Source: Odontocerum albicorne
Lineage: Eukaryota > Arthropoda > Insecta > Trichoptera > Odontoceridae
Assembly (NCBI GenBank): GCA_949825065.1
Contig: OX463841.1
Location: 23,448,916-23,512,915, forward strand
Direction: 5' to 3'
DNA length: 64,000 nucleotides
Within the stretch, counting starts at the first letter, position 1. Each line of letters starts with the position of its first letter. A model generated the notes under the pieces. That model was given only the letters and a program-made list of their open reading frames with translations, ran no database searches and was not told the origin of the DNA. Below, one piece after another: positions 291-63,460 of the stretch. A program made the translations under genes and the position numbers.

Positions 291-1129
291 GAAAGAAAAT
301 GAAGTTAAAAACGCAAAAAAGATGTAAATTCTATCATATTTTCAACGCACATTTTGATAAAAGTTTCCATGTTACTTTGTAGTTATAGGTATGGCTTTCT
401 TATGAAAATACATCACCAGTTTCATGTATGGTAACTATTTCGTTTAATATATTCCTTACAGCTCATAACATATAGGTAGAGAGACTTCTCCAAGTTGTGC
501 ACTGCTCTTTATATTTTAATCTAATATTTATTTATCATAATACGAGTATCCCATTTTCACTCGAGGTATGGTTATCGAGTACCTTATTATTTAAATTTAA
601 AAAAATATTTTATCATACAAAATGAAAATCCGGGTTCATTTATTTTTTGCATAATATACTGTATAATTAATTGGTTTTCAATGCTGCACATTTTTTGTAA
701 TTGTTTGTACGATTTCTTTTATTTTATTTACATCAATTAACTTTAATAATCTTCACAGAAAAATGCGGATGTATTCAATGTTTTATAATATTTTCAAATT
801 CTCAAGTGTTAATCTCATATGCAATACATTAAATTAATTTATTTTGATGAATAATCCGGAATCTGCTCGTTGATTTTATTTCCAAGCATTATGTTCGACA
901 TTTTCTCTTTGTGTGTTCTTTAGTTGGAAAATGTTTTTATTTTTCCTTTAACCGTATCTTTGCATTGGGCATTGCTTCGTCAGTTGAGAATTTTTAAAAA
1001 ACACATTCCAATCTAATAATATAACTAAACCGATACATTCGATTGAAAAAATATGCAGTACTTAACATAAGATGGGGAAAGAAGATTGTGATGGTTTTTC
1101 CACGTCCAAATCAATAAAATTTTGAAACG
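291..1129. other. AT-rich spacer, nothing recognised
   Basis: Very AT-rich, no frame above 60 codons with any signature, no repeat that I can pair, apart from one TACGAGTA at 541. Confidence 0.6.
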
Positions 1130-1262
1130 AAAAGCGTTTATAATATAGTAGACGTTTGGAGGTAGCAGAAGCGAAAGATGTGTGCCAGGATAGAATGCAG
1201 TAGAAATGTATTCTTTTTGCCTATCCCAATTGGGACATGGCGTGATGGTGGTGATGTAAATA
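1130..1262 (+). mobile_element. LINE 3' tail fragment
   Basis: GAGGTAGCAGAAGC...GATGTGTGCCAGGATAGA leads into a tail resembling other LINE ends in the window (CTATCCCAATTGGGACATGG, then CGTGATGGTGGTGATG). Only the extreme 3' end is present, as usual for 5'-truncated LINEs. Confidence 0.6.
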
Positions 1263-1483
1263 TATTATTTTTTTAGCAGATAAAACAAGCAATCGCCATA
1301 ATGTCTCAATTATTCTTCATATTTTATTTTATTTTTTTCTGCATTGTGATCAATCTAGATACTTTATCGTCAAATTACATTTTTTAAACAATTAAAACTT
1401 TATAATCAATTAGTTAGTAAACTTTCATGAAATTCACCCCAATTACAAAATTATCAAAAATTTCGGTGTTTACTTTGTGGAAC

Positions 1484-1690
1484 ATCATATTTAAATATTT
1501 TGTTATTACACTAATTACATTAATTTTTGCGAGACGTGTTTCTATATCATTCATTCTCTTCAGGCAAAGTAAAGAGAGCATCGAGATGTCTGAATACAGC
1601 CTGGAGATAGGAGGTAGAAACACGTGTCACGGGGATTAATGTAATTTGTGAAATAACAAAGTAATTTGTTATTAAATATTCTAAATATAC
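1484..1690. repeat. Imperfect inverted repeat, MITE-like
   Basis: The left arm (about 1484-1548) and right arm (about 1612-1690) are imperfect reverse complements, sharing ATTACATTAAT and ACGTGTTTCTA. The centre holds CTCTTCAGGC...AAAGAG. The right end, ATAACAAAGTAATTTGTTATT, recurs in the palindrome at 2075-2165. Frames on both strands here mirror each other and are not genes. Confidence 0.7.
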
Positions 1691-2074
1691 AACAATTTTA
1701 GTAAATATTTTGAGCTTGAACATTTTTATCTTCATATTTAAAGCTGAATTCCAACTTGACGTTTAAATCTAAAAAATAATAAGAATATTTTGATGTACTC
1801 GTATGTTATATTTATAAAAATAACCCGACCGACAAAACGCATTTGGTTTATTTGACATAAATATATTATTTGTTAAATTCGATTGGGAAAAAAATTCATA
1901 TAAGTCTATAAAAAGTATTTGGATTTATCCTCAATTATTTTATTCTAGTTAAAATGTGGATATGCAAAAATACCTATTTTTGCATATTTATATCTATTTT
2001 ATATATTTTGAGGTATTTGTGTAAATGCAAGAGCAATCTGAAATTTTAGGATCGACTTAAACCATAAAATATTA

Positions 2075-2165
2075 AAAAATAAATTACTTTGTTATTCCAC
2101 TAAATATTGGAATTTTAGTGGACTAATAAGTAGTATAACAAAGTAATTTATTGTTAAATATTCTT
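2075..2165. repeat. Palindrome related to 1484-1690
   Basis: AATAAATTACTTTGTTAT (about 2080) pairs with ATAACAAAGTAATTTATT (about 2137), and inside them CCACTAAA pairs with TTTAGTGG. The outer arm matches the right end of the inverted repeat at 1484-1690, so the two are probably members of one small foldback family. Confidence 0.72.
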
Positions 2166-2267
2166 ATATGGAGTTCCCCAAAGTTAAATTCGAAACCTTT
2201 GGTAAATCACAAACCATTTGATTGGCTGTATTTTTTTCGAGATCTCCTCTTTCGATATTTCAAAACA

Positions 2268-2640
2268 AGTTGAACGACAACCTCCGTGGCCTAGTTGGTA
2301 AGACATTTGTCTTCCACCCGGATGTTTTGGGTTCGATTTTCGATGATAGTAAAAGGAAAATAAGAAAGAGAGACATTTTTTTCTTTTCGTCTGGTAAAAG
2401 AGTTCGTTAGGTAACAATATTTACACGTGCTGAGTACGTGTGCGAGCGTTGTTGCCTCTTCACGTGCAATAGTGTTACAAACACGTGCATTGACGAACTA
2501 CGAATTCCGTGCCCACTTTAGTTAGTGGTTATCGATTACTAGACTGAAGACAATATTGTCTCTCGGCTACACCCTTCAGTATATTTGAATTACCAATTCG
2601 GATGTGTTGAAGGGTATCATACGTAATAAATAAGGTAAAT
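2268..2640 (+). mobile_element. tRNA-derived SINE, second family
   Basis: A tRNA-like head (2277-2347) carries an A box, TGGCCTAGTTGG, and a B box, GGGTTCGATTTTC. It is followed by a body beginning near TCTGGTAAAAGAGTTCG that also occurs, without a clear head, at 51-290 and, diverged, at 34030-34265. Shared body words include AACACGTGC, GACGAA and TTGAAGG(G/A)TA. This looks like a SINE family distinct from the more frequent one. Confidence 0.6.
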
Positions 2641-5282: not shown

Positions 5283-8200
5283 TTAGAGAGTTGATGTTAA
5301 TTAAGTGAATATTTCGGAGATCTGTAAAAGAGTTGACTACATAAAAGATGAGTGTAATCATTTAAATGTACGAGTATTATAGACTTTTTCAATTGAATAA
5401 TTAGTTTTGGATTAGATTGAGTTTATATAGAGATTAAATAAATATACTTTTACTCGTAAAGTTTTTAAAAATTCATATTCTAGAATATGAGAGGCTAACG
5501 ATAATTGTATTATTTGTAGCCTTTAAATATATAATTCAATACATCATGAGGATTGCTTGATTTGCAAATAAAAGGTAGTACCCCCAAATATTTTCACCTA
5601 AAATTTAGTTGATAACGGTTGAAACTTGTTTCGGTGTTTATTTTCCACAGTAGCTTGCTTTTTATGTAATTTCACCAAAAAACATTGTTCGGTTATCGAC
5701 TATTCGTTCATCTCACTGCTTTAGAAACCAATCACCGAAAGTAATGAAATACATAAATTATCATATTTCTATCCTATAAGACATTTATTTCAACGCTTCT
5801 TCATAAGTTTACAATCTTCACGTTATAGAAGTACAGTTTAATTTTATCCCGGTAGGTTCGTGATATTAATGATAATATTATACAATAGTTTATGAACACG
5901 TTACATTGCCAGCTGAACACATAAACAGTTATCGGACTGAGTTTCTTTGAATAATGCAAAACTGTAGCGTATTGTGTATTATGAGAATATGGATTTGCCG
6001 TGGGATTTGCTGCCATGTCTAATTGGCATTTTTTCCGGATTTTACAGAACACGGAAGTAATATTCCACAGTAATATCATTTTCATTGAAGTAACTCCTTT
6101 TTTAATCGTTTAGCCTTGAACGTAAATCGCCTCCTAAAAATATTAAGTTTGTTTCAAATAATTTCATAATTATTGGTATTTGCATATTACATTGTAGTTA
6201 CGTATACAACGTGCAGTCCCTAATTCGGTTTTAACGACAGATTAATTGGATGATGGTTTGGGAGTATGTTACACTCACGAAGTTATTATGCTTTTTTATA
6301 GTTAGATCCTATCGTTTCTTGGCTTCGTGTCGCGTTTATTTACTTTCAACAATTTTTTTTATCGAATTACAATTTATTTCTACGTGAAAAACGAAGGAAT
6401 CTTATACAATACTTATAAATAACGTTTATTTTTACGTTTAAATAAATCTAAAAGATTATTATTCACCATGCTACAAGTTTTTGTTTATTTACCGGTTTCG
6501 CTCGGCGAGTATCTTCAGAATTTAATTATTCCGAAGGTGCTCGCTAATCGAAACCTTTTAATGGACAAAAAGTTATTGAAATCACATTAAATAAACTTGA
6601 TTTATTTTGTTGTATTATAGAGTTTCATTAAAAAATTTCAGAGAAGAAGCTTTTGTATTTTTTTACTTGAGTTCTGAAAAAGGTTATACTCGTATATTGG
6701 CATTCCAGATATTCTCAAAAATACCAAGTTAATTTTAGAAAAGTGTATTATTTGGAAACTTGTAATTGGGAATTAATTCAATATACTTTTGATTCTTTCA
6801 ATTGCTTTTTATTTCATGCGATTTCAGTTATTAACTGACCCCACGTGCTGTTACCATATTTTTAAATATATATTTTATTCAAAATTCTCTATATTGTCAG
6901 TTCATTGTTATTTTCTAATTTCGATCTTCTTTTTGCGGATCACAAAATATGCAATTAATTGCTGGCCAAAAAGTCAAACTACTGTGGAATTTATATTGAC
7001 CAATTTATATTTTGTGTACAAGTTATAATACGATTCTTTGGCATGTTTAGGCCACCTCTACTACTACCACATTTCACATATGTGATATACTCGTATATTT
7101 CTTCTTTTCTTGTACTTGATGTCTATTATTATGTCACTCTGCCTTTTATAAAGTATATTCATTGTAATTTATTCTCATTTTTGTCGAAATTAACGAACTA
7201 TTTTTTAATACTAAGAATATACTAAACTCGGAAGTCCTGGGTTCATATTATGAACCAGTTAAGAAATAAAAAAATCTCACTGAGCGCATATCACAAATGG
7301 TAGCATTTGATTCATATAATCCATTTGAGTTTAACTGCTAACAAAGCGATACAAAAAACCTTCTGAGATATGAAGACTCATCATATTTTAGATACTCGTA
7401 GTTGGCTTAATCCCACGCCATTTACTTGTTTATTTTATTCATTCTCTTTTTTTACATTATAAGGAAATATAATGGAATAACAAAAGTAACAGTTTAAAAA
7501 TATATATTTCAAATAATCATATGTTCCTCTCCATCCATCATATTTAATTTTTGTGCTTAGATACCGCAGATTGTTGACCGATTCACTAGGAATTCTTGTT
7601 TTTAGTCACTGTTTATCACATGTGTCAATTATATTTTTATAACAAAAAGAACATTAAAAAATCTAGATATAGCTGAGATTTTTACACTTTTTTAATTTAA
7701 TGAACAAAACAATAATAACATGCCTAACAAACATAACCACACTCAAATAGATCTTTGGGAAATGGCGTGATGGTATGTATGCAAATCTTGAAAATATTTG
7801 CTTAGATCAGCAAACATTTTGTACCAACCTTATTGCTAATATTATCCGAGACAATTGTGAGATGGTGGTGGACATTGTGAGATAAGGAAGACAATGGAGA
7901 TGACAATGGCACACGCATATGGAAAGAATTGATAACTCAAAAATAGCACACATTGTAATGCGTGGCAGTTGAATTGGCAACCGACCTCCAGGATGGAAAT
8001 AGCTATTAATCTATGTACTAGGTCACTAGGAGATACCTACCTGATAATTAACATACCAAAGGACTAAGAATGATAGGAAAATATATTTAAAACATTAATA
8101 GAAAAGTAGTTGCCGATGATTATAGTGATATAATAAATATTTCATTTTAAATACGTGACCATAATAAATATATGGCTATCGTAAATGTAGAAAAATAACG

Positions 8201-9779
8201 CTGTCGCATTTTTAAATCTGTGGATTTGTGATAAAATTTTATTTCCTTTGCAAGACGAGATATTTAAAAAAAAATATTGCCTTTATGAAAATTATGGAGT
8301 GAGTGCTGAAATGGTCCGCTTTCTGAAATCAAGATGTCCCCCATCAGAATTTTTATTTCCACGTATTTGATCATAATCAAATTGAAGAATTCTCGGAAGG
8401 TTTTCGTTGTGCGAGCTGTTGGAAATTGAAGGAAAGGATGAGGCACCCGGAATACCAATATCGCGGAAATTATCCTGTCTGCTTAGGTTACATGAATTGA
8501 TTGATTTTGTTGGCTTCGATTATATGGAACAGTGTGTGAAATGTCGGCAATAACCTGCTTTCATTTTAATACACCCATATCTCGCTTTACGGATCCTCTT
8601 TTAACGGAATTTCTTTAGAACGGAATTTAAAAAAAAACAAAAAAAATCGCTTAGCGAAAAAAAACTCGATGTACGAAATATTTTTAAATTAACGATTGAG
8701 ACCGACAAAACACCCGCACCAGAGTAATCTACAGGATTTGTCTCAGAAAATTATAATCGAGTTTCTTCCTAAAAATTCTACACCCATAATGTAGCCAATG
8801 GATTAAGGCGTTTAAATCATATTATTTACGGAGAACTTTTCGTCAACTTACTCGTATTGACGGTACTGATCGGGGAAATTTTTCATTATTTAGAGAATTT
8901 GGGGAGAAATTTAATATCCAGAATGCACTGGATAATATCAATGAGTCGGGGCAAGACATCATGCAACAACATACTCGTATGAATTGTGCATGGAAAAATA
9001 TTTGGCTAAGGATCACAATGGAAGACAATCATCTTGTGTTGTGAATATTTGTATTACATATGTACGAGTATTACATATTATAGAATAAACTACATTGTTT
9101 TTCTTCATGAAACACGTCATGCACATTTAATATGTAATTTATATGGAAAAAATAATTCGATTAACGTACAATTTTCACGGAATGTATTTTTTTCTCTAAA
9201 ACGAGGTATAGGTGTAACTCGGTTGATACGTTTGCACTAGTGTATAGGTGGTTAAGTTGTTGTAATCTTATTAAATATGTTCCCAACACATGATATATCA
9301 TTTTAGAGCTAAACGCGCATTATCATTACCCTTGCTGCTCATTTTGGAATGATTTTTCGGTTACAATCAGATGTTATATATTTGTATTTAAGAAAAAAAA
9401 ACTAAAAAAACCTTTACTTCAAAATGTTTCACACTCCTAATATTACTATATACTATTTTCATATACTCGTATGTTTATATTTACATCTAGATTTGTCCTT
9501 GTTTTAGTTTTTGGGTGTTTATTTTATCATAACATATAATATCGTTATTTCTTTTTTCCAATTGTCATGATACTCGTATAAGTCATCGATACTTAACTTA
9601 TTATGTTAATTATGCAACAAAAGCTGAATATGTGGAATAAATCGCTATAGTATAGAGCAATACATTCACAAGATATATGGATACATGAAAATGTTCATAA
9701 ACATATACAGGTATTTTTGCATTAACCAGGTCGTAGGTACATCTTAGTACGGCTATGGTAAATGCAAAATATTACTTGT
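5283..9779. other. AT-rich spacer rich in TACTCGTA octamers
   Basis: There is no gene, SINE or LINE that I can support across 4.5 kb. Frames reach 94 codons (5801-6085, - strand) but show no domain. Eleven TACGAGTA/TACTCGTA octamers lie here (5369, 5451, 6687, 7088, 7393, 8849, 8972, 9063, 9464, 9571, and a variant near 9936 just beyond), the densest part of the window. Confidence 0.55.
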
Positions 9780-11573: not shown

Positions 11574-11575
11574 TA

Positions 11576-12861
11576 CGAGGGTTGCTAATTAAGTTTTGAG
11601 ATATGGCGACACCAGTGTAGATACGTCAAATCTGACATCAGCATCGTAAAGTTTGACGTTTTTAATGGTATACGTGCTCAAAAAGTTTTGTCATACGAGT
11701 GCTATTTGTGTTGTTTACAGTGACTTGAAAAATTCATATTGGCCTAAAATGGGATTAAATCGTGAACATTTTCGTGCAATTATTTTTTATGATTTTCGAC
11801 GTGGACTTACTCAACAAAAGTGTGCCGATCAACTCCCTACGACTTTTGGTGATGAAGCACCATCCCGGGCCACTGTGTTTCGCTGGTTTTCCGAATTCAA
11901 TCGTGGTCGTAATCGCTCCAGGACGAATTTCGTGAAGGTCGTCCAAAATCGGTTGTTGTGCCAGAAAACATCGATGCTGTGCGTGAACTGATATTGCAAG
12001 ATCGTCATGTGACTTATCATGAGATTGAGGCATGTTTGGGCATTAGTTCCACTCGCATACATTCAATATTGTATGACCATTTGGCCGTCAAAAAGATTTG
12101 TTCGTGTTGGATTCTGCATAATTTAACAATAAAAAAAAGACTCGTGTCGATTGGTCCAAAGAAATGTTGAAAAAAATCGATCGCGGTGCTTCAAAAGACG
12201 TCTATAAGATCGTGGCAGACGACGAATCATGGATCTATGCATATGAGCCAGAAACTAAACAGCAGTCAACTGTATGGGTCTTTCAAGACGAGCCAAATCC
12301 AACAAAAGTTGTTCGCGCACGAAGCACTTCGAAGAAAATGATGGCTTGTTTCTTCGGTATAAATGGTCATATCGCAACAGTGCCTTTAGTGAAAAGTCGT
12401 ACGGTCAATTCTGAATGGTACACCACCATTTGTTTGCCAGAAGTGTTCGGAGAAATGAGGAAAACCAACCGCCGAAGACGGATCATTCTCCACCACGACA
12501 ATGCGAGCTCTCACACATCTGCTCAAACAAGTGACTTTTTGAGCACTCAAAACATCGAATTGATGGGTCATCCGCCGTACAGCCCTGATTTGGCACCCAA
12601 TGACTTCTTTTTATTCCCGAACATCAAAAATAAATTGTGAGGTCAACGTTTTTCGACGCCTGAAGAAGCGGTTAATGCGTTCAAAACGCATGTTTTGAAG
12701 TTACCTCATTCGGAGTAAAAAAAGTGCTTCGAAAATTGGTTCAAACGCGTGCAAAAGTGTATTGATCTTCATGGAGATTATTTAAAAAAACAATAAAGCC
12801 ATTTTCGATGATAAATATTTGTTTTTACTTGTCTGTCTCAAAACTTAAGTAGCAACCCTCG
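11576..12861 (+). mobile_element. Mariner A, full-length DD34D mariner
   Basis: This 1286-bp Tc1/mariner element has terminal inverted repeats starting CGAGGGTTGCTA and ending in the reverse complement (CAACCCTCG), flanked by TA duplications at 11574-11575 and 12862-12863. The single transposase gene between them is broken. Mariner B at 28039-29261 is the same family. The terminal four bases, CGAG, are the ones found inside the octamer TACGAGTA scattered through the window. Confidence 0.95.
11749..12796 (+). pseudogene. Mariner A transposase, broken
   Basis: This is a cut-and-paste transposase that would bind the terminal repeats and insert at TA. The ATG at 11749 opens the N-terminal helix-turn-helix region (LNREHFRAIIFYDFRRG, then SRATVFRWFSEF). 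Compared with mariner B, one base is missing near 11912 and four near 12132, so the protein is spread over three frames. The catalytic region is recognisable: DDESWIYAYEPETKQQS (first Asp), HHDNASSHTSA (second Asp) and HPPYSPDLAPND (third Asp). The second-to-third spacing is 34 residues, so DD34D. Two in-frame stops follow, at 12638-12640 and inside the SE*KK motif near 12716. The element cannot supply its own transposase. Confidence 0.92.
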
Positions 12862-13394
12862 TAATTAAAACATAGTCGCAAGTGGAAATTCGTGCAATTT
12901 CAATACACAAGTTTAATAATTGATGTCAATGTGTGCATAAATATGTTATCTTCGTGACTTAATAAAGAAACTTTTTAAAATATAGCTCGTTTATTTGAAT
13001 GTGTCCTTACGGAGTTTTTCAATAAAACTTGCATTTTTTAATCATGCAATGAAGTTCGTTAAATAATTCTCTATTGAACTTAACTAAACCTCGGTCAACT
13101 CTAACAAATGGTCAATATACTCGTATAACATGAATCGCGACTTGATTAATAAGGATAAACAAATTAACGCCATTTTCTCAAATAATTATTTTTTGAGTAA
13201 TTTTTTTACAGAGCTTGTGTAGTTTAACAATAAATTCAATCGTTATAATTTCATTGAAATGTACTTTTATTTTATTGAAATACGAAATACTGATTTTTCA
13301 AATGTGTGCACTGAGAAGTTTACTAGATTACTCCTAAGCGACCAAAGAAGTGGACAAATAATCGATGAGATCTTTTACTCTCTAATGACCTATA

Positions 13395-14335: not shown

Positions 14336-16524
14336 CTTATTTGAGTATATCGCGTATCAACAGGAATCCAGTTGAAAGACAGGCGTTTTCAAGTTGTTTA
14401 TTTCCAGCGTTTAAAGATCATGTGTTTTCTGCTAAAACAATAATCGCTTTTATCTTTGTTTACTGAAAATGTTATTTATTTTTTGTGAAACTTTAGGAGT
14501 CAAAAAAATTAATTAAATGGACCCGTATTTTGCACCTTACTGTATTATATACGGGCACGTATATGTTTATTCGTCTAAGATTTGGTTCACTATTAAAAAT
14601 TCGAAGTAAGTATCTTTCTATATATTATGTAATACATATGTTCTATTAAAGAATATTGCCAGTCAGACAATACTAGGCATTGAATGAATTTGATACTCTT
14701 CGGCCCAAGACACCGAACTTGGGTATTATAACAAATGCCATATGGACCACAAATGATAATGATGTTTACTTTAACTACAAAACACATTAACGTTTGACTT
14801 GGAAAAACACATTTCCACGCCAAAGTAAATTATAAAAAAAAAGTTAATAAAATAATCTTGTTAAATTAGTCATGTACCACAAACCAGGTTAAAGTTATTT
14901 ATGTTGCTTGAAATAGTCAAACGTGGGAATTGTCTGACAAACACTGGTTAACGGTGTTTTTATTTAGTATTTGCACAGTAGCTTTTTTATCTTTTCCTTC
15001 TGTGTTCAACAGATAATTTCCTACGATATACTATTTAGGAAACACACACTTATCTATTTCCTATTGTCAACTTCTAACCGGTCTATGTAAATACCGTGGT
15101 TAACCTTTAGAAGTGAATGTTGAATAAGTCGAGTCGAAAAAAGTTTTTTTATATTTTTTCACCTCATTAGAGACACTAGATATGGCATATTCAATGCAAG
15201 GCTGTCTCATGTACATTTTTTTCGCATGCCTTTGAACTAGAAAATAATGAATATTTATTGAAATCTCGTTAGAAATCTCAATAAAGATCTTGATTGAATT
15301 AAAAACGGCATGAGTCAAATATTTTCGAAGTCGAAATGTAACATTCTTCCTGCGAAAATGAAAACAGAAATTTAAAAATTTAACAGTAAAATGTTGAAAT
15401 GAGGAAATGTTAATGATTTTCCACATTTAACTAACTGTATTATACCTAATAGTGTACAATTATAAATTATCACAAATATATTATAATAACGTGCTATACA
15501 CGTACGAGTATGTGTTTAAAAACACTTTTTTTTAATTTTATATTTCTGAGCAATAAGGTAGCAAAACATGTTCATTATTAAATAATAATGGATTTTAAGG
15601 TTAAGGAAATCATTGCAACACTTTATTTTTTAAAGTTTGAACTAACTTATTGTATATGTGTAGGTGCATGGCTGCGCGTTGGACTTCTGTGCGGAAGACC
15701 GCCTCTGGTTCGAATCCCGTACTGTGCTACTCCCCTCAAATGACATACACAATTTTTCGTCCAGTATTCGGGAGTATAATAATATCTAGAACTTCGGTCA
15801 TATATATATTCTTTTTAAAAAAAAATCCATTTTCGAACAAAATGTTTTTTAAGTTACATTATTTTATTCCTTTGTATTTGGTTAATTAATAGGTATTCGT
15901 AAATCACCACTAAATTTACAGTCACATATCTGAATTTATTATTCAAAACTCCTCAAGTATTTAGTACTAAAGTAATTTTTTTACACATTTTTACACTCCC
16001 TCCTTTCCTTTAAATTGTTATTGGCACAAATCTTCCTCTTTATGCGATGGAATGCAATTTTCATTTTTAAATCCCAATTATCTCGAAACGATGTAATTTA
16101 GACTTGTGACACTCTTATAACAAAGATGTTATATGTATGCATTAAGCTGGTTATCGTATTGTGAATCAAGATAATGATAATGCACAGAGGAACATAATTG
16201 CTGGTGTTTGCATGGCAAATAAATAATGCGATTCTGGAACAAATCTATCTCATTGTTTTTCAAGGCTATTTTGTTTTGTTCACTATCATAATATCATATG
16301 ATTTTTAAGAAGTCTATTTATCTACTCGATACAATTTTTCCTTTTGTAAATTAGAAGTTTCATTGTTTTCGTTAACTCTTTTTACGATTTTCAATGGTTC
16401 ATAATTTTCATTTATTGGTTTCATTGCGGCATTCGTGTAAAGTGAACTTTTTAGATCATCGTTTTTTTACAAATTTATATATTTTATGTTACCGATTATT
16501 TAGTAACATTTAAAGAAAAGCAAA
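14336..16524. other. AT-rich spacer
   Basis: Apart from the tRNA-like head at 15655-15740 and a TACGAGTA at 15503, I see no gene or repeat. A - strand frame at 15100-15426 (108 codons) shows no domain and is composed of AT-driven residues. Confidence 0.5.
15655..15740 (+). repeat. tRNA-like SINE head, unassigned family
   Basis: GGCTGCGCGTTGGACTTCTG resembles an A box region, and GGTTCGAATCCC is an exact B box. The flanks do not close a proper acceptor stem, so I read it as a SINE head and not a functional tRNA gene. Confidence 0.45.
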
Positions 16525-16945
16525 GCTGGGCTTACAATGTTATATTAGTCCCAACATGAGAATATGCATGCGAAACTTGGACGTGGTAAAAAAGTGATGA
16601 AAGTAACATAAATGCGGTAGAAATGAGAGCGTTGCGCAGAATTTGTGAAGAAATAATGTGTGATAGAATAAGGAATGATCACATAACGAAATAATGCGGA
16701 TTGAAAGAAGATGCAGTGGTTAAGATGTAGAAAGAATGAATTATGAAAATTTACAACAGTAATCCATACGAGTAGTTTGAAAAAAAAAACAAGAAAAGCG
16801 GGGCACGACCAAATTCTGAAAAAGGAAAAGCCTTTATAATAGGCAAGTATGCATGACGATGTGTATGAACCAGACAATGAGAGTGAATCTGTTATCTCTA
16901 CCCACCCCAATAGAGACAAGGTGTGATGATGATGTGATGTATTTG
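16525..16945 (+). mobile_element. LINE 3' end remnant (RTE-like)
   Basis: Translated pieces match the C-terminal tail of an RTE-type reverse-transcriptase protein: ETW-like context, then INAVEMRALRRICEE and DRIRNDHIT, interrupted by stops. The 3' end carries the family tail, CCCACCCCAATAGAGACAAGG then GTGATGATGATG. Related tails occur at 1130-1262, 20265-20310 (- strand) and 24835-24890 (- strand). Confidence 0.72.
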
Positions 16946-17754
16946 AGTAATTTAAAAAAAGCTTATTTTAATTAAAGAAGAAAAAATTCTATTGAAAATC
17001 TATTATTAAACTCTTCTCCATTATTTAACTTTTTGCCCATTTTATGTAAATATTTTAAAAATATTCAAGCATACATTAACATAAGAATTTTAATACGAGT
17101 TTGAAAAATATCTTTTTTGCTAAGTACCGCACTGTAGAAACAATGAATTGAATATGCAAAAAACTATAAAATTGTACAATGTATGAATATATGTTTTATT
17201 ATTTGAACAAATATGTCAAGGACGAGAGATGTTGGTAAGGAGTATGTACTTTAACTTGAGTGAAAGAGCTGGACTGTTAATATTTCTAACGAAACCCGTT
17301 CTCGGTTTCCCCAGTTACAACAGGTTTTAACTTTGTTTATTATGACTTCACCTTTTAAAAGATTGTTTGCTAATTCCAGAAATGTAACCTTGGATCACTT
17401 ATGCCTTCATGACACCATTCAGACATTCCCTTTTATATGCGCTTTTAGCAGCAACAGGTCAAGCATCACGATTTATTGTATGCAAAGTCGTAAATATTTT
17501 TGTCTATAATATGGTAATAATTTATATAGCGTTTATCGTTTGTTTAAATGTATGTGAAGCGATAATTATATATAAGGTACGAGTATAACAAGTGTTTTCA
17601 ATAAAAAAATTAAGGGTAATTTTATTACAATACATATAATTAATTTTACTCTAATTTCTGCAATGACGATGTATATATTGAATTTGCGTTTACTTACCTC
17701 AGGGTCAGGGTCTAGAATACATTTTTGAGACATATTTAGTCTTGGCCGCCAACC

Positions 17755-20939: not shown

Positions 20940-21660
20940 CAGAAGATTACGAGTATTTGAATTCAGCTCATCGTCCGGTAAAGCCGAGATTACTGATAGG
21001 CCTCACTTTTTATACTCAGCACCGGAATCCGGTTGGTATAGTCCACCGATAAATATGCCAAGACCGACTGACGGTAACACTGAACTTGATGTCGCTGGCA
21101 GAACGGTCTCTTCGGACAGGAATGCGCTCCTACTCTTACATGGGCAATAGGCACAACTCGCTATTGCGTTGCCCGTTTCAATGGATCGCCTCCTAATACC
21201 GTTATGTCTACACTCGATAACAACGGATCCTCATTCAACGCGGATTTGATTATACGCGACAAAAACGGTAAAATTAGATTTAATTATATATTTTTTATTG
21301 AAGAATTAATGTTACAGTTTGTGTTCTTGTGAGTGTAATAAATTTAATCTATTTATCAAATAATAATAATCAAAAGAAATTTAGATGGCAGACTCCTCAA
21401 GGGAGCACTAACTCGGCAATCAAACCCACTCCTATTGAAATATTAAAAATATTGTAAAAACAGAATAAGTGAAACGGATATGGAAGTGACAGATGCGGTC
21501 ATTAGATTAGGTATTTCCCGTATCTGCATATGTTAAAAAAACCTATTTGTTACGAAAACGCAGAAAACTTACCAAGGGAAGAGAATTATAAAAACTTTTC
21601 GCCGATCTTCCGATATGTGACAGTATCTCTTAACTTTGTGAAGTTTTAAAGCCATGCAAG
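20940..21660. other. Unassigned GC-richer segment
   Basis: 20940-21260 is distinctly GC-richer and unique in the window. Translations in all frames contain stops. 21385-21660 has fragments such as a basic RKRRKLTKGREL stretch. It may be an old retroelement (terminal repeat plus start of coding region), but no primer-binding site or paired repeat is visible. Confidence 0.3.
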
Positions 21661-23869: not shown

Positions 23870-24164
23870 AATATTCATATGATATTTACTTACTCGAAAC
23901 CCCATCGTTTGTATCCTGTGTTTGACTTGGCCGGTCCTTCGGTCTAATTTTCGTTGACTTGACGGGATGAACATTTTATAAAGCTATGTATACTATAAAC
24001 TAACAAAACATTCTAAATTCACTGGTCGTTGTAGTATACTCGTATCATATCTATCACTGTTTGTCACCCTAACACAACATCCTTGTGGCACTGAACATTA
24101 CTGTTTTTCTTTCTTAAATAGTCTTTGGAAAAAAATATTCGTGGTTTTTTTTTTCGTTCGATCA

Positions 24165-44069: not shown

Positions 44070-44159
44070 TATTATGTTATCTGATAAGTGGCTAAGTATT
44101 GTGGTTGAACCATCATTAAGAATGCATAAATTGTTATACTCGTAGTCCACAAATTCAAA

Positions 44160-48038: not shown

Positions 48039-48423
48039 AATCAAATTTGAATACGCTTATTTTTAAACTCTTAAAATACAAATTTCCTCTTTCTATAGTA
48101 CGAGTATATACACAGTTGGTATAGAAGTTGTCAAAGAAACTTATGGATCTATCATCGATATGGAAAACTAAATATTTTTTTACTAAAATATTGAACTTTG
48201 TTATTGAATCATGTTTCAAACTGAAAAATTATTTTTAATCACCGTTTTGGAATTGATTCCGTGTTACTAATCATTTTTGGTGTCTAATAATTATTTCATA
48301 CCTACGAGTATACTATATATAACTTACGAACTCCTTTAACATGAGTTGAACGAAATGACAATATTCTACGAGTATCTTTACAGATTTTTGGTAATAATTT
48401 TTTTACTTATCGTCAAATGTTTT

Positions 48424-53224: not shown

Positions 53225-54440
53225 AAATTCCGTCGCCTAGTTGAAAATTGACATGTCTCTTGACTCAGGGGCTACAGATTTGATTTTGTGCGGTCTGAAG
53301 CTTCTGTAGGTTTTTTTCCTGTGAGCGTCCATGTCTCACAGCCAAACGTAAGTACTGAGAGAATACACTGGCGGTAAACCTTAAGTTTCAAAGATATTGG
53401 GAGGTCACTTTTGACAATATTCAAACGTCCAAATGAGCTCCAAGCTAGTTATATCCATCGTGATATTTCCAAAAGAAATAAGTTGACCCATATACACGTA
53501 TTCTTGAACAAGTTCCAGCTACTTCACATCTACAATTATTGGTTTTGGGGCCGCAAAGCTGTTCATCATATATTTGGTTTGTGATATGTTCATTTTTAAA
53601 TCATTTTGTTTACTGACCTCTACCAATTTCTGTAGTTGGTGCTGAAGATCATTCGGGTATTGTGAGAATATAACAATATTGTCTGCAAATCTCAAACAGT
53701 TCAGGTATTTTCCATCAATCAGTAATCCCTCATTGTCCCATTTCAGTTTACTAAAGGCATATTTAAGTGTAGCTGTGAATAATTTTGAGGAAATAGTATC
53801 GCATTGACGGAACTCCTTTACTTGTTTGGAAGGTTTCAGAAAATTTGGGAATATGCATAGCTGGTTGCTTCCTTATACTCGTAGATGATATTGAACAACT
53901 TAATGTATGCCTTTTCGATGCCTTGTGTTTTTAGAACCTCTAGTTTGACAGATTTTTTTACTGAGTCAAAGGCATTTTCGTAGTCTACAAAGACTAGGTA
54001 TAGAGAGAATGAATTCCTATTCTTCATAGCATTCTTTAATTTTCCGCAACACTTGAATATGATCTATGGTACTGGTACCGTTCCTGAATTCAGCTTCTTT
54101 ACGTGACTGGTTCGTGTTGAAGTTGTCGAGAGCAGCTTAGTTAAGATCTTAAATGGTTTGTACAGAGTAGGTAACAAGCTCATCAGACGGTAGTTCTTAA
54201 GACCCCCTGATCGCCTTTCTTATGGAAAAGTATTAGGGTTGCATATTTCAAAATTTTCGGAATGCTTTTTTCCAGAAGTCACTTGTTGATGGTATCCATT
54301 TCTCTACCCATTTGTTTTAGGACATCGATGGACAAACCGTCAGTGCCAGTAGCCTTTTCGGATTTCATACCTTTGATATGTGAATCTGATTTCATCTGTA
54401 AGATCTTTGGAATATTTTCGTCCTTCGTTGTTTCGAGATC
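53225..54440 (-). pseudogene. LINE reverse transcriptase remnant (RTE-like)
   Basis: On the - strand, from 54400: MKSEKATGTDGLSIDVLKQMGREM, then LYLVFVDYENAFDSVKKS (palm motif A), a region with EFRQCDTISSKLFTATLKYAF, and CLRFADNIVIFSQYPNDLQ. The catalytic FADD has become FADN. LVEVSKQNDLKMN, GRLNIVKSDLPISLKLKVYRQCILSVLTFGCETWTL and a Lys-rich end follow. The order is complete but stops and frameshifts break it. A six-base insertion (CGAGTA) inside the IIY/KEATS stretch at 53876-53883 matches the TACTCGTA octamer. A GTAT microsatellite lies beyond its 5' side. Confidence 0.85.
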
Positions 54441-54445
54441 TAAGT

Positions 54446-54623
54446 TTTGTATGTATGTATGTATGTATGTATGTATATATGTATGTATGTATATATGTAT
54501 GTATGTATGTATGTATATATGTATGTATGTACTCGTATGTATGATATGTACTCGTATGTATGTGTGTGTATATGTGTATGTGTGTATGTCTGTATGTATG
54601 ATATTTATGTATGTATATGTATA
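54446..54623 (+). repeat. (GTAT)n microsatellite with two CTCGTA insertions
   Basis: GTAT repeats are interrupted twice by TACTCGTA (54530-54537 and 54549-54556). Removing CTCGTA at each place restores GTAT repeats. The tract lies between a LINE remnant and the long-inverted-repeat element at 54624. Confidence 0.93.
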
Positions 54624-55656: not shown

Positions 55657-56786
55657 TTGGGTGTTATCATACTCGTACGTTGTGTTCGTTTTTTTTTTCA
55701 ATTTAAAAATGAGCACCAATAGTAAAACAAAATGGTAAATGTTATACGTCATTCTAAAGAAAATGTTCTGCTCTACAAGATGCTGTGTTTGCTTTTACGT
55801 TACATGTATTATTTTATTCGATTACAAGCCTTCAAAATAGAATGTAACGTAGACGAAAATGAGCATTTTCGACACCTCCTTCTGTTCGCATTTAATCGAG
55901 GAAATAAAGCTGCAAAAGCTGCTCGCGATATTTGCGAAGTGTACGGTGAAGATGCTATGAATGAAAGACAGCTCGTCAATGGTTTTTCCGTTTCAAAGAC
56001 GGTAATTTCGACGTGAAAGACATGGAGCGTTCCGGACGACTAGTGGACTTCGATGAGGACTGCTTAAACCATATTATTCATGAAGATCCCCTTCAAAAAT
56101 TTTTCATCACCATTTTCAAACCATTTTTCATCACCAGTAATGATGCGGTAAAGGAACCTTTGCTTGTTGCCATGCGTAGCTCGATGACGCGTGAGCAAAC
56201 CAGCAGAAATTGTCGAACGTCGATTTTTGCTGTTTTCACTCAAAACACGTGGAACCCAAGCGTCGAACTTCTGGACTTTTCCCATTGATTTAAGATAGCG
56301 GTATTCAGCCATGTGACTACAATTCATCTCCTCAGCCAACTCTACGGTGGTTTGAAGGAGATCTTCATGAATAATATGGTTTAAGCGGTCTTCGTCGAAG
56401 TCCACTGGTCGTCCGGAACGCTCCATGTCATTCAGGTCGAAATTACCGTCGTTGAAACACAAAAACCATCGACGAGCTGTCCTTTCATCCATAGCATCTT
56501 CACCGTACACTTCACAAATATCGCGAGCAGCTTTGGCAGCTTTATTCCCTCGATTGAACGCGAACAGAAGGAGGTTTCGAAAATGCTCACTTTAGTCTAC
56601 TTGACATTCCATTTTGAAGCCTTGCAATCAAATAAAATAATATATGTAACGTAAAAGCAAACACAATATCTTGTAGAGCAGAAAATTTTATTTTGAATGA
56701 CGTATAACATTTACCAGTTTGTTTTACTTTTGGTGCTCATCTTTAAATTGAAAAAAAAAACGGACACAACTTATGTTAACACCTAA
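55657..56786. mobile_element. Palindromic mariner with two 5' ends
   Basis: This 1130-bp structure is flanked by TA on both sides (55655-55656 and 56787-56788). Both termini are the same 5' mariner end: GGTGTTA...GTTGTGTYCG, then a T-run, then GAGCACCAA. The right arm (56786 back to about 56098) reads on the - strand from the terminal repeat through the transposase N-terminus to the first catalytic motif (ITGDEKW). The left arm (55657 to about 56097) is an inverted copy of the first 400-odd bases of the same 5' half. No 3' half is present. The protein family differs from mariners A, B and C. The left arm has a one-base deletion that shifts its frame, and a CTCGTA insertion within its terminal repeat. 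Confidence 0.88.
56064..56510 (-). pseudogene. Mariner D transposase N-terminal fragment
   Basis: The open frame of the right arm encodes a mariner N-terminal region: VYGEDAMDERTARRWF (helix-turn-helix), DMERSGRPVDFDEDRL linker, LLQTTVELAEEMNCSHM (second helix region), WVPRVLSE, and ITGDEKW with the first catalytic Asp. It then runs through a local repeat (GGTGATGAAAAAT twice) into the inverted left arm. The second and third catalytic Asp are absent, so it cannot be active. More 5' coding sequence (AFNRGNKAAKAARDI) lies upstream in the same arm. Confidence 0.85.
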
Positions 56787-57527: not shown

Positions 57528-60244
57528 GTGAGATTTATAATATTTTAAATATGTATGAATATGTGTTTGAGATAAATGAGAAATCATAAATGGAAAACTT
57601 ATATATTTTAAGAAATTACTATCAATTTTTAAACATAAACAACAATATATTTTTCAACAGAACACAATTGAAAATCAAAAGAAAGATAAAGCAGTTTGTA
57701 TGTTGTTTTTGAAAATAATTTTGTCGTTGTATTTCGTGCGCACTTGCTTACAAGGTAATTGAAATTCATTGTTATTAATCGAAAGGATTTTTGAAAGTCA
57801 AATACGGGTAAAGTGAGTGTATTAAGATTTCGAATAAATGGAAATGTTACGAGGTTAATCGGATAGTTCAATACGCTACCTCTGTTTCCAATGCTAATTC
57901 TCGTATCTCTCTTCTAGAATTCCAAGTTATCGTGAACATCTGTCTCCATCTTAAGAAGAAAAATGATCCTCTTAATCTGGAGGTATCGCGCTCGGCAGAA
58001 GCAAAATTATATTTTCATTTTCGTTCTAATGAAAACCTTCGAATATTGGCAGTGCAATAAATCTTGACATTATTTTGCGATATGCTGGCGGCACGTTTCT
58101 GTATGTTATGTTTTCATATCTCATAACAATTTAGGCTTGAGAAAAACAACCAAGTTTACCTTCTAAACTTCACAGTTTCGTTCAATTTATAAACAAATTT
58201 CCGCTCATGAAATTATCTAAAATATGTAACTTAAGTCGCAAACCTATTTAAATAAACAATCTCTACATTAAAAATATAATTCATAAAATTATATATCAAT
58301 ATTAAATTATCTTTAAATTTACAAATGATTCTTAAACATTTTTTAATTGTTTAGCCTGTGTGATCAGCTTTAAGTGAGACTTTTTATCAGTAATATATGA
58401 AAACACAAAGTAACAGAACCAATTAAAAACAAATAATGAATTTCCCCCTATACGATCAATGTATATTGAGTAACTCTATTAAATTTGATTAATTTTAGGA
58501 AGATCAGCAGGCTGTAAATCAAACATTAAAAAAATCTCTAGATTAATTGAATGTTTGTCGTACGTTTCCAACTTATTTGAAGTAAAGTCATATTCATTTT
58601 GAAAATATATTAAATTTTACAAAAAACACTCACTCTCTCATACTCCCGACGTAGTACAATTAAAAACTTGAAAAAATAAGTAAATCATAAACGTTGAAAA
58701 TGATGAAGAAAGAAAATATAGAAAGTGAAACAGAAAAGTGACAATCTTTTCAGCTTCATGTTTTAGTTATCAACCGCTGACGTGTTTTGATTTTAAGTTT
58801 CACTTGTCGCGAGTTCTGAATTGAATAATGCCGACCACACTCTATTGTTTATTGTAAACGGATGAAAAACGAGTTATTATTTTATGGCACCTATTGATTA
58901 GAATAATGTATTATTGCATTTGTATTAATAGACACCAATTCCAGGATTATGGGCAGCGATAATTATAGCTTTGACCTCAAAGTAAATGCGTCATGTATAT
59001 CGATTAGTATACATTGTTAATTTATAGGAGAAATCTAAGTGATATTAAATGTCGTCATAATTTAAGAAATTTTATAGCCCTTGTTAGTAAAAATTAAGAA
59101 TTGGGTCAATTTCAACTTTCTGCATTCAAAAAGGTAATTATGATATTTTATGCGTCATAAAGTAGGAAGTAGAAACATTCTCGGTAATATAATTTTATTT
59201 TTGCATTGGTTTTCAAAAATTAATATTTTCTATTGTACAACTTAAAACAAAACCATTTCAGAAAGATGATATTTTTTATTTTATTTGCTGTCATTTGGTA
59301 ATTAAATTCAATCAAGTAGTATATATTTAAATTAATTAATTTGAAAAATATTCACAGGGTCACATTTTTTCAAAGCATCCGCGAGGTATGTTTATTCAGA
59401 TATACAGAGGGAATCTTTTTACAAAAGGAAAATTATGAATATTTTGAAAAATAATTTAACAACAAACCGATGGTTTGATATCTTAATTTTTAAAATTATT
59501 TTCATGATAATCGTAATTTGTAAGATATCCCAAAATATGATTTTAATATTTTCAGATCCTTTATTTTCTACCTATACAACCTTTCCATTTACACCAATCA
59601 TTTCAAGTTGTCACGTAGTATGTGATGGTGATGCTTTAATCTCAGAATCTAATTTACTTGTTTTTTTTATTTAACCCTTTCGTGCGAATATACCTGGCGG
59701 ACTTAATGCTTTAAAGCAGTTTCTTTTAATTAACCAGCTCTTGTTTGATGATTATTATTGGAATCCATGACCATGTTTTTGACCTAGTGTAGTGGAGAAA
59801 AAATAAAATAAAACTCAAGTAAAATAGGGATTAGAAGGGGAATCGTATGAGAGTTTAGGACGAGGAATATTTAGATATGAATAATGCTTCTAAGTTTATG
59901 TTTAAATATCGATACGGAAGAAGCACATCTGATTGAGCCAGGATGATCGTTGCAAACTCGAGCCGAGTGAACTAGAAAATACTCGTATGATGTCTAAAAT
60001 GACGTGTGATGTGTTGGTACATAAATTATTCTGCTGTTACCAGATTGGAGGGAAAGTCTGTGCTAACACACCAATTTTTTTTTTCACAGATACTGAGAAC
60101 AGCTTGGATTATTCAACACTCCAAGGAGGAATTGACTGAACATAGAGATGTCTTTATAGTATTTAAATAGTAATTTGCAGAATAAGAAGCGTAATTATTA
60201 AGTTGAATATTTGGTAAAAGTTTATGTCATTGACGAAATATTGA
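57528..60244. other. AT-rich spacer, possibly intron
   Basis: If the donor at 57527 is real, this begins an intron. No downstream acceptor-exon pair is convincing. Near 60090-60135 TTTTTTTTTTTCACAG precedes a short frame ending STLQGGID and TGA; it resembles an acceptor and a last exon, but is too short to trust. Confidence 0.3.
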
Positions 60245-61167: not shown

Positions 61168-61372
61168 TTTTATTTAGAATTACAAACATGCCCCTTATGG
61201 AGAAGGCAGAGAGAACATTTTTATTTATAATTACAAACATGCCCCTTATGGAGAAGGCAGAGAGAACATTTTTATTTAGAATTACAAACATGCCCCTTAT
61301 GGAGAAGGCAGAGAGAACACTTTTATTTAGATTTACAAACATGCCCCTTATGGAGAAGGCAGAGAGAACATT
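61168..61372 (+). repeat. 51-bp tandem repeat, 4 units
   Basis: Four units of 51 bp contain AATTACAAACATGCCCC and TTATGGAGAAGGCAGAG. The period is a multiple of 3, and one frame (61188-61412) gives a 17-residue repeat starting MPLMEKAERT, with few changes between units. A gene is not supported: there is no domain or splice context, and the frame starts inside the repeat. Confidence 0.93.
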
Positions 61373-62304
61373 TTTAATTTATGGAAGTTTCGCAATTGTT
61401 GTATTGGCTTAATACAGTACTAAGTGCACCGTGATCTTGTAACACATTGTTAAATATATTTTTTTTATCTTATCGTCACTCGAAAACTTACTTCCCAGAT
61501 AGCGAAATTCCTCGACTTGCTATATCCTTTCAATGTTCAATTATACATTACAAACATTAATATTATAAAGGCCACAAACATACAACAATACAAAAAATAT
61601 AGGATTGCTTATAAGAATTAAAAAAGTATTTTAGAATATATTATTTTTTGGGTACACATTAGTTGACATTTCAAATAAGTTCTAAAATATGGTATATGTT
61701 TCCCTTTTATTTTTCAAAATATTTATTTCACTTTCAAAATAGGCGAATAATTTGTTCGAAATGAGTAACATTTTTTGAAAAAAGATGTTTAATATAGTAA
61801 GTGTGTTATATACTACACAAGTATTTGTGTTAAAATATTATACTTGATTATAATGTACTCGGTAGATATAATTTGCCTGCTTTAAATTTACCTGATAACT
61901 ATTTTAATTCTATTTTTATATGAATTTTAGAAGGTTAAGGATGGATTTTTTAATATATAATTTTGGGATCGTATTTTTGAAATAAAGCAACATCATGTAA
62001 AGCAACATCGTGGAATACACAAATATTGTATGAAAATATTGTACCTCGAGTTAATACTACGAGAATCACAATGATTCATCTGTGCACATTTTATGCAAAA
62101 ATCAATTAAGCCTGAGAACTGTTGTTCAATTACTCATATATCTATTTCACACTAAAAACATTTAATTTGCGGTGTTCTTTAAATATAAGTTTCGACTTAA
62201 AATGTAAGTAAAGTTTAAAGCTTACGGCTAAACAGTATTTCAAACATAGCGAATGTGAATGATATAAGCTTAACTCAAATATTGCACTGATTTAAAAAAA
62301 ATAA
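61373..62304. other. AT-rich spacer
   Basis: No gene or repeat seen between the 51-bp tandem repeat and the interleaved inverted repeats. Confidence 0.5.
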
Positions 62305-62370
62305 ACCACGATTTTTTGTAGATACCAGCTTGTATAGTATCTACAAAAAATCGTGGTATACAACTGGTAT
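62305..62370. repeat. Interleaved inverted repeats
   Basis: A perfect 21-base inverted repeat (62305-62325 with 62337-62357) has an 11-base loop. A second inverted repeat (62322-62336 with 62357-62370, one base missing) crosses it, because its left arm uses the end of the first arm and the loop. The order is X-Y-X'-Y', as in an H-type pseudoknot. Confidence 0.9.
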
Positions 62371-62472
62371 TAAAATTTGTCGGGAGTTGTTGATTCACAA
62401 GGTATTTGAAATTTGAATATTCATATTTTTGTTTGATTATGATTTTACAAAATTATTACTTGTACAATAAAA

Positions 62473-62615
62473 TGAATGGTTGAAGTAAAATAGGCACTAA
62501 GTACAAAAAATATCTAAGTGTGCATTTTCATTCTATATGACATATACTCGTAGAACGAAACTGCATACTTAGTTTTTTTTTTTGGTACTAGTGCCTATTT
62601 TACTTCAACCATTCA
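62473..62615. mobile_element. Short inverted-repeat element (MITE-like)
   Basis: A perfect 27-base inverted repeat (62473-62499 and 62589-62615) includes GGTTGAAGTAAAATAGGCAC. It extends inward imperfectly through GTAC and A/T runs, with about 90 bases between the arms. A TACTCGTA octamer lies in the interior (62545-62552). Target duplication is not clear. Non-coding. Confidence 0.7.
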
Positions 62616-63239
62616 AATATCTGCCATGTTTTTCATTTTTGGCTTTATTTTATGTGAAATAAGAAAAACTGTGAAAATAACCTATTTTGAAACAGTAAGC
62701 GAAATACTGTAGTACAATTTTCAAAACGCAAGATGTGTTTGTCAAATATATACAAATTGTAATAATAGTGTTTTCGAGCTTGGCATATACATTTCATATT
62801 ATGTTAATATGAAAATCCCAATAATACCATATAACATATTTTGTATTTGGAGTTGCATGGTTATACATCGAACCATTTTGCAGGTCAGAGAATTCCTCTC
62901 AAATTGTTTGAAACGTGGAATTCCATCCCTCTTCAACTTAAAAGTGACATTTTGACGTACTGTCAGGCATAAATATAAATGAAAATAAACGAATTAAAAA
63001 GAATCACAGAAAAATATCGCTGAAATGTGAAAATAAAGGAATAAAACGGCCAAAAAATAATTTTGATGTAATGCTTGTACGAGTATATTTGGTATATTTT
63101 TTATACGAAGTTTCAGAAGGTGAATAATCTAGGATATTTTTGTCCTTATATTTTTTATTTTCACAATACATCATTTCAAATTTACATCGTTTTAATGGAA
63201 AAGCGAACCATAGGGCATAAGTACATAACAATGTTCCGA

Positions 63240-63460
63240 TGACGACGAATTCTGCGTCCTGTTTGGTAAGACGGTTACATGTTCGATTCTCGTTGGTACT
63301 CAGATTTTTTTTAAATGGTTCCAGACAGGTTTTCATTCAAGGCTTGTTTAACACTTTTTTGATTAGCTTAAAGAGATAATCACGTGGTAATAAGTCCGCT
63401 AGGTTGTATATACGAGTATTACATACAATGAAAGTGTTGTACAATACAATGCGAAAACCC
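63240..63460 (+). mobile_element. tRNA-derived SINE, main family, with octamer insertion
   Basis: Head with GTTTGGTAAGACGG and ATGTTCGATTCTCGTTGG, body with TTCCAGACAGG and GTTTAACACTTTTTTGAT, tail with CAATGAAAGTG. Between GGTTGTATA and TTACATACAA the copy carries TACGAGTA (63411-63418), absent from the same place in the copies at 5245, 24775 and 34445. Confidence 0.72.

What the first reader, a model, noticed from the sequence alone, without database searches (positions are those of the whole stretch)
541..63418. TACGAGTA octamers look like mass excision footprints of the mariner A/B family
By eye I find 35 exact TACGAGTA or TACTCGTA sites; base composition alone predicts roughly 2-3 (assuming about 33-34% each A and T), and the CpG inside should make them rarer still. 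The octamer parses as TA + CGAG + TA. Mariners A and B begin CGAG, end CTCG and are bordered by TA, so excision leaving four terminal bases of either end, then joining, gives exactly TACGAGTA or TACTCGTA. Tc1/mariner excision is known to leave the TA duplication plus a few terminal bases; about 3 is usual for Mos1, so 4 would be a variation. CGAG overhangs from both ends would pair at their outer bases, a reason for a uniform scar. If right, the genome has been peppered by insertion and loss of this family at about one scar per 2 kb, each adding 6 bp.
Basis: partly seen in the sequence, partly recalled or inferred. Interest (0 to 1): 0.88.

Follow-up and report, generated by a model that had tools for sequence, protein, structure and literature searches.

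The report
Hundreds of thousands of transposon scars
A short eight-letter word sprinkled through this caddisfly's genome appears to be the scar left when a small jumping gene cut itself out, and the scars seem to outnumber the jumping genes of this kind that remain.

Summary
The word is common genome-wide: 381,502 copies in 1.287 Gb, about 14 times a 3rd-order Markov expectation in a 267-kb sample (106 vs 7.3). The host is the caddisfly Odontocerum albicorne.

Where a non-tandem paralogue of at least 80% identity exists (4 of 106 sampled octamers), 4 of 4 show the octamer as an exact 6-bp insertion at a single TA; other TAnnnnTA words show this in 1 of 292 site-outcomes. One weak pair (71-73%) shares an octamer. 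Among scars of 1-8 terminal bases only the 4-base form is enriched.

The link to mariners A/B alone is not supported. Several mariner families here end in CGAG; family C (about 950 bp, three sampled copies 96-97% alike, 9,700 right ends) is commoner and looks younger. Scars outnumber counted exact-match ends about 15-fold.

Most likely these are 4-bp excision footprints of CGAG-ended mariners, accumulated over time. The kind is known; its density and uniformity are, as far as my searches reach, unreported.

The parts
541..548 (+). octamer TACGAGTA (scar)
   Evidence: exact match
1796..1803 (-). octamer (TACTCGTA on +)
   Evidence: exact match
5369..5376 (+). octamer
   Evidence: exact match
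5451..5458 (-). octamer
   Evidence: exact match
6687..6694 (-). octamer
   Evidence: exact match
7088..7095 (-). octamer
   Evidence: exact match
7393..7400 (-). octamer
   Evidence: exact match
8849..8856 (-). octamer
   Evidence: exact match
8972..8979 (-). octamer
   Evidence: exact match
9063..9070 (+). octamer
   Evidence: exact match
9464..9471 (-). octamer
   Evidence: exact match
9571..9578 (-). octamer
   Evidence: exact match
11574..12863 (+). mariner A with its TA duplications; CGAGGG ends, frame broken
   Evidence: 28/30 matched ends, inverted repeat, translation with many stops
13118..13125 (-). octamer
   Evidence: exact match
15503..15510 (+). octamer
   Evidence: exact match
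16767..16774 (+). octamer
   Evidence: exact match
17578..17585 (+). octamer
   Evidence: exact match
20948..20955 (+). octamer
   Evidence: exact match
24037..24044 (-). octamer
   Evidence: exact match
24829..24836 (+). octamer; a weak paralogue (L015:4460, 71-73% identity) shares the octamer, other weak paralogues do not
25200..25207 (+). octamer; weak paralogue at 29910-30033 (66% identity) lacks 6 bp here
28037..29263 (-). mariner B with its TA duplications; 330-aa open frame with no match to the N-terminal HTH_48 domain
   Evidence: 28/30 matched ends; Mos1/SETMAR homology; Pfam; 83% to an unnamed mariner-type protein, 77% to a Harpegnathos saltator protein
38805..38812 (-). octamer
   Evidence: exact match
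44137..44144 (-). octamer
   Evidence: exact match
44467..44474 (+). octamer
   Evidence: exact match
45994..46001 (+). octamer
   Evidence: exact match
48099..48106 (+). octamer
   Evidence: exact match
48303..48310 (+). octamer
   Evidence: exact match
48367..48374 (+). octamer
   Evidence: exact match
53876..53883 (-). octamer
   Evidence: exact match
54530..54537 (-). octamer inside a TGTA-type simple repeat; may not be a scar
54549..54556 (-). octamer inside a TGTA-type simple repeat; may not be a scar
55670..55677 (-). octamer at the outer part of one arm of a long inverted repeat; the other arm (56672-56788) and L012 lack the 6 bp
59980..59987 (-). octamer
   Evidence: exact match
62545..62552 (-). 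octamer
   Evidence: exact match
63078..63085 (+). octamer
   Evidence: exact match
63411..63418 (+). octamer; most weak paralogues lack about 10 bp here

Best explanation
Each octamer is mostly the footprint of a past insertion and excision of a mariner transposon whose ends read CGAG...CTCG. The element inserts at a TA and duplicates it. On leaving, four terminal bases of one end stay behind, so the site becomes TA-CGAG-TA: 6 bp longer than before. SHOWN: where good paralogues exist, the octamer is a 6-bp insertion at one TA; its inner bases equal the terminal four bases of several mariner families present here; of TA-bounded remnants of 1-8 terminal bases only the 4-base form is enriched; octamers are thinner in younger repeats. 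INFERRED: that transposase nicks four bases inside each end and leaves CGAG overhangs; that the two overhangs pair by their outer C:G and G:C bases and the inner G.A mismatches are then resolved to one strand, which would make the scar uniform; and that most scars come from the commoner CGAG families (C above all) rather than from A/B. Because cut-and-paste elements can leave a scar each time they move, scars can outnumber surviving elements many-fold.
For: Paralogue test with control: 4 of 4 octamer sites with a non-tandem paralogue of >=80% identity (L010:9763, L018:5343, L029:1845, window:55670; 7 of 7 alignments) show an exact 6-bp gap, against 1 of 292 site-outcomes for other TAnnnnTA words and 0 of 201 for A/T-only ones (Fisher p 1.6e-8 on 4/4 vs 1/292). 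In the looser search 8 of 14 octamers with any alignment show a 6-bp gap in at least one paralogue. No shared octamer in any alignment bin from 75 to 100% identity. Of 44 insertions of 4-12 bp between >=80% paralogues, 11 are 6 bp long and 4 of those are the octamer. In minisatellite L025 the last unit has bare TA where the other five have the octamer. Remnant lengths (A/B ends): TACGTA 86/84 expected, TACGATA 19/28, TACGAGTA 78/5.1, TACGAGGTA 1/1.1. CGAG-ended mariners bordered by TA: A/B, C and a third family. Octamer flanks are richer in A before and T after than TA sites in general (51% and 68% vs 38% and 40%). Octamer density rises with age of the host sequence: observed/expected 0 (0 vs 2.7) in repeats >=95% alike, then 0.34, 0.49, 0.77, and 1.21 in unique sequence. 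In print: Tc1/mariner footprints of 2-4 bp (PMC7913693, passage).
Against: Only four sites pass the strict paralogue test. At >=70% identity three more octamers gave other gap patterns; in the looser search 5 of 14 octamers, all with paralogues under 75%, showed no clean gap and one showed a 10-bp gap. One weak pair (window:24829 and L015:4460, 71-73%) shares the octamer. Three-base overhangs are stated for Sleeping Beauty and mariner (PMC7827188, passages); a uniform 4-base scar is at the edge of the known range. 30 of 100 listed family-C right ends are CTAT and 10 are CTAG, yet scars of those ends are not enriched (TAATAGTA 18/16.8, TACTAGTA 8/7.5). Flanks are asymmetric about the octamer (22 with A only on the left vs 40 with T only on the right, p=0.03), which random resolution of identical ends would not give. 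Few decayed octamers are seen (one-mismatch shell 181 vs 184 expected), although scars built up over 5-10% divergence should leave some. No intact transposase was shown, and no transposition was observed.
Confidence: 0.85

Rival explanations
1. The scars come from mariners A/B alone.
For: A/B have CGAG at both ends bordered by TA; 1,702 exact ends remain.
Against: Four copies are 88-92% alike and short-framed in 3 of 4. Family C and a third family share CGAG ends and are commoner, and the three C copies sampled are more alike (96-97%).
Confidence: 0.1
2. The octamer is a functional motif (protein-binding site or architectural signal) spread and kept by selection.
For: One exact word, no excess of one-mismatch neighbours, present throughout the genome; one weak paralogue pair shares it.
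Against: In good paralogues it appears as a unique 6-bp insertion absent from relatives, which selection on a word does not predict. It is thinner in young repeats. Variant octamers occur inside arrays.
Confidence: 0.05
3. A different TA-inserting element, now rare or lost, with CGAG ends made the scars.
For: Scars far outnumber the counted CGAG-ended mariner ends. Scars of the CTAT/CTAG-ended C subfamilies are missing.
Against: Three CGAG-ended mariner families are present, with from 1,702 to many thousands of exact ends each group, so no missing donor is needed.
Confidence: 0.12
4. Germline elements are cut out of somatic DNA in each generation, as ciliates do with IESs, so the assembly of a whole insect shows fresh scars.
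For: Uniform scar with few decayed forms; far more scars than element ends.
Against: Octamers amplified and mutated inside tandem arrays behave as heritable DNA; density rises with host-sequence age; a mariner copy appears to sit in the TA of a scar (L043); thousands of element ends remain in the assembly.
Confidence: 0.03

Closest known systems
Tc1/mariner excision footprints (Mos1, Sleeping Beauty, ZB)
   Same: TA duplication plus a few terminal bases left after cut-and-paste; 2-4 bp range reported (PMC7913693, passage).
   Different: Here one enriched 4-base form in hundreds of thousands of copies; a three-base offset is given for SB and mariner (PMC7827188, passages).
vertumnana-type mariners such as Rhodnius Rpmar10
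   Same: Rpmar10 ends CGAGGGGCACTACTTATATTTTGAGCC... (PMC4678618 table passage), close to A/B ends CGAGGGTTGCTACTTAAGTTTTGAGA.
   Different: That text holds no occurrence of footprint or excision. Subfamily placement of A/B rests on end resemblance only; no tree was built.
Rhodnius Rpmar33
   Same: End CGAGGCATGTCCAGAAAGTAAGTGTA is near-identical to the family C end CGAGGCATATCCAGAAAGTAAGTGTA.
   Different: 8 copies listed there; thousands of ends here.
Ciliate IES/MITE excision (Paramecium, Blepharisma; starts of abstracts in listings only)
   Same: Very many excision events by transposase-derived machinery (TA-bounded in Paramecium, recalled).
   Different: No sign of somatic-only excision here; scars look heritable and keep 4 extra bases.

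Membership tests
Tc1/mariner excision footprint | TA on both sides of the residual bases | tested here: met
   TA+CGAG+TA; words with either TA altered are not enriched
Tc1/mariner excision footprint | Residual bases equal the terminal bases of a TA-inserting element in the genome | tested here: met
   CGAG ends of A/B, C and a third family
Tc1/mariner excision footprint | Unoccupied relatives of the site have a single TA (insert of 6 bp) | tested here: met
   4 of 4 sites at >=80% identity, control 1 of 292; weaker paralogues mixed (8 of 14) and one weak pair shares the octamer
Tc1/mariner excision footprint | Length in the known 2-4 bp range | tested here: met
   4 bp; range from PMC7913693
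Tc1/mariner excision footprint | Made by transposase-dependent excision | not testable with these tools
   needs an excision assay
Footprint of mariner A/B specifically | Source element identifiable as A/B and not another CGAG family | tested here: inconclusive
   other CGAG families commoner, C more homogeneous
mariner (DD34D) for elements A/B | Mos1-type transposase, TA duplications, short terminal inverted repeats | tested here: met
   Mos1 8e-23; ends 28/30 matched with TA; DD34D spacing counted by eye, no call computed it
Programmed somatic elimination (IES-like) | Sequence present in germline, absent in soma | not testable with these tools
   indirect evidence against:

The most novel reading that the evidence does not exclude
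The scars are renewed by excision in each generation: CGAG-bounded elements persist in the germline and are cut out of somatic DNA of this insect by a mariner-type transposase that leaves a 4-base scar, an animal counterpart of ciliate IES excision.
Probability: 0.03. Interest if true: 0.97.

Novelty: new variant of a known kind. Interest (0 to 1): 0.68.

Why it matters
Excision footprints are usually studied one by one in assays. If some 350,000 heritable scars of one type can be read from a single assembly, they form a fossil record of how often mariners moved, independent of how many copies survive. They would give rates of excision, target preference and repair outcome in nature, and would show that cut-and-paste elements can add a dense layer of 6-bp insertions to a genome, too short for repeat annotation to see. 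The same count could be run in any genome with CGAG-ended mariners, such as Rhodnius.

Tried and rejected
Octamer as part of a longer repeat: flanks show no common sequence beyond a weak ATA/TAT preference. Octamer causing tandem arrays: 1 of 60 arrays of period 15 or more in the 267-kb sample holds it, about what density predicts; the arrays L023-L026 were picked because they hold it. Two-ended scars: TACGAGnCTCGTA occurs at 42 places in the genome (21 for the reversed control), so these are rare. Family C as a purely asymmetric CGAG/CTAG donor with a single G.A mismatch: drawn from one copy, then dropped because CTAG right ends are only 1,129 and 55 of 100 listed right ends are CGAG. Decay dating by one-mismatch neighbours: only bounds mean age to a few per cent, because control words scatter by 12-18%. 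Planned genome counts of flank bases, of one-mismatch words and of empty sites at L010:9763 were sent but not answered (and later); counts of alternative scars were never sent. The 10-base gaps at window:63411 and other weak paralogues were not counted as support. Left out of the sample counts: L002-L008 (overlapping neighbours of L001 or each other), L023-L026, L033, L034 and the element ends L035-L054.
Full report
OBSERVATION. The window holds exactly 35 octamers (16 TACGAGTA, 19 TACTCGTA), the first at 541 and the last ending at 63418. In 207 kb (window, 14 arbitrarily placed 10-kb stretches and the 3-kb locus L001) only TATATATA and ATATATAT have a higher z-score against a 3rd-order Markov chain (92 vs 5.4). 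In 267 kb, with one 1-kb array masked, the count is 106 vs 7.3. That larger sample adds five arbitrary stretches and L027, which I placed in the octamer-rich start of C1; the 19 arbitrary stretches alone hold 70 octamers in 190 kb, 14 of them in one array. The genome count is 381,502, against 30,151 for the reversed word. Scaling by the Markov ratio, roughly 350,000 are in excess of chance; 15 of 120 sampled octamers were flagged as lying in tandem context. CpG is not depleted (o/e 1.14).

HOST. COX1 from the 16,572-base mitochondrial contig is 93% identical to Psilotreta (Odontoceridae). Assembly span, mitochondrial length and the chromosome lengths seen match Odontocerum albicorne iiOdoAlbi1 (PMC11112305: search listing and passages). 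The window lies on C7, 55.89 Mb, which that paper's table lists as chromosome 4.

INSERTION TEST. I aligned paralogues within the sample. Of 106 octamers, four have a non-tandem paralogue of >=80% identity with good flanks, and all four (seven alignments) show an exact 6-bp gap: L010:9763, L018:5343, L029:1845 and window:55670. For TAnnnnTA words not purely A/T in the middle, a 6-bp gap occurs in 1 of 292 site-outcomes (1 of 460 alignments); for A/T-only middles in 0 of 201. At >=70% identity: 4 gap6 and 3 other-gap outcomes for octamers, 2 of 439 and 1 of 268 for the two control classes. A looser search of 105 non-tandem octamers gave alignments for 14: 8 show a 6-bp gap in at least one paralogue, one a 10-bp gap, and 5, all under 75% identity, no clean gap (my reading). 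No octamer is shared in alignments of 75% identity or more, but one weak pair (window:24829 and L015:4460, 71-73%) does share it. Among all 44 insertions of 4-12 bp between >=80% paralogues, the octamer makes up 4 of the 11 six-base ones. At window:55670 the paralogues are L012 and the other arm of the same inverted repeat. In minisatellite L025, five units hold the octamer and the last holds TA. The octamer is therefore, where it can be judged well, a 6-bp insertion at TA.

REMNANT LENGTH. Of TA + n terminal bases of A/B + TA for n = 1 to 8, only n = 4 is enriched; counts for n = 5 to 8 are 0 or 1. The longer remnants of family C were not counted. The two-ended form TACGAGnCTCGTA is rare (42 places).

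DONORS. Mariners A and B in the window begin TACGAGGG and have matched ends. B's transposase frame is homologous to Mos1; its best relative is an unnamed protein at 83%, and named insect proteins follow from 77% (120 best listed). Four A/B copies compared are 88-92% alike; the longest open frame is 330 aa in B and 117-172 aa in the other three. A/B ends number 1,702 exact. Other CGAG-ended families occur: 11,086 ends match TACGAGGSWYATCCAGAAA, about 70 of the 100 listed being CATATCC type (family C) and 29 the TCATCC type or close to it. Three family C copies, aligned in part, are 96-97% alike. Its right end matches TAnnnnGCGTATCCAGAAA 9,700 times; of 100 listed, 55 are CGAG, 30 CTAT, 10 CTAG and 5 others. 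TACGAGGG occurs 25,124 times (reversed control 11,981). Scars thus outnumber the counted exact-match ends (1,702 + 11,086 + 9,700) about 15-fold; diverged ends were missed, so the true ratio is lower. I cannot say which family made which scar.

AGE. One-mismatch neighbours show no excess (181 vs 184; control words 0.95 +/- 0.12 and 1.03 +/- 0.18 of expectation), which limits mean scar age to a few per cent divergence. Density per suitable TA rises with age of the host sequence: 0 of 2.7 expected at >=95%, 3 of 8.8 at 90-95%, 3 of 6.1 at 80-90%, 12 of 15.5 below 80%, 88 of 72.9 in unique sequence (target weights come from the same octamers). Counts are small, and avoidance of repeats by mariners could add to the trend. 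The two results pull slightly apart: accumulation over 5-10% divergence should leave more decayed scars than seen.

MECHANISM. Known: Tc1/mariner excision leaves TA plus 2-4 bases (PMC7913693, passage), with three-base 3' overhangs for SB and mariner (PMC7827188, passages). Inferred here: a four-base offset; overhangs CGAG/CGAG pairing at outer C:G and G:C; resolution of the G.A mismatches to one strand. Unexplained: flank asymmetry and absence of scars from CTAT/CTAG right ends.

NOVELTY. Searches for footprints of this kind (listings of 12-15 papers each) and for TACGAGTA with transpos- (26 papers, 15 listed, none on this by title) showed no report. The library holds only open-licence papers. 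The Trichoptera genome-size paper (passages) reports abundant LINEs (>312 Mb in this species) and DNA transposons; its main text has no occurrence of mariner, footprint or excision. The kind, an excision footprint, is known; the number and uniformity are new to my knowledge.

The shared octamer, the no-gap cases, the A/T-only control, the non-random loci and the caveat that the 15-fold ratio is an upper figure were added; confidence was lowered from 0.86 to 0.85 for the shared pair.

Noticed in passing
window 46647-48038 (+): Open frame encoding the Rab3GAP catalytic subunit C-terminal part (Pfam 1.8e-60); three octamers lie within 350 bp after it, none inside.
   Followed up: no
window 26967-28038: About 1.07-kb TGTATA/TATATA simple-repeat array directly abutting mariner B.
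   Followed up: no
window 42785-44068: Another mariner-type element with two separate frames (HTH_48, Transposase_1, DDE_3) and GTTAGTCAAAACGTTTTGAAAGCG arms, not CGAG-ended.
   Followed up: partly
window 55676-56773 and 54615-55606: Two elements with very long inverted repeats (289-292 bp arms), one holding a Mos1-type HTH domain.
   Followed up: no
L043 (C1 about 36.009 Mb): An A/B mariner appears to be inserted in the right-hand TA of an existing TACTCGTA octamer.
   Followed up: no
L013:5006: The only control 6-bp gap at >=80%: TACTGATA where the paralogue has TA; TACTGATA is mildly enriched (17 vs 11.2) and could be a scar of another TA element.
   Followed up: no
family C right ends, genome-wide: Terminal tetramer is CGAG, CTAT or CTAG (55, 30 and 10 of 100 listed), while only CGAG scars are enriched.
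   Followed up: partly
106 octamers in the 267-kb sample: Right flank T (68%) is stronger than left flank A (51%) relative to the CGAG strand (p=0.03); the cause is unknown.
   Followed up: partly
C9:43.235 Mb, C43:7.673 Mb, C21:21.797 Mb, C28:15.923 Mb: Nuclear COX1-like fragments, probably mitochondrial insertions.
   Followed up: no
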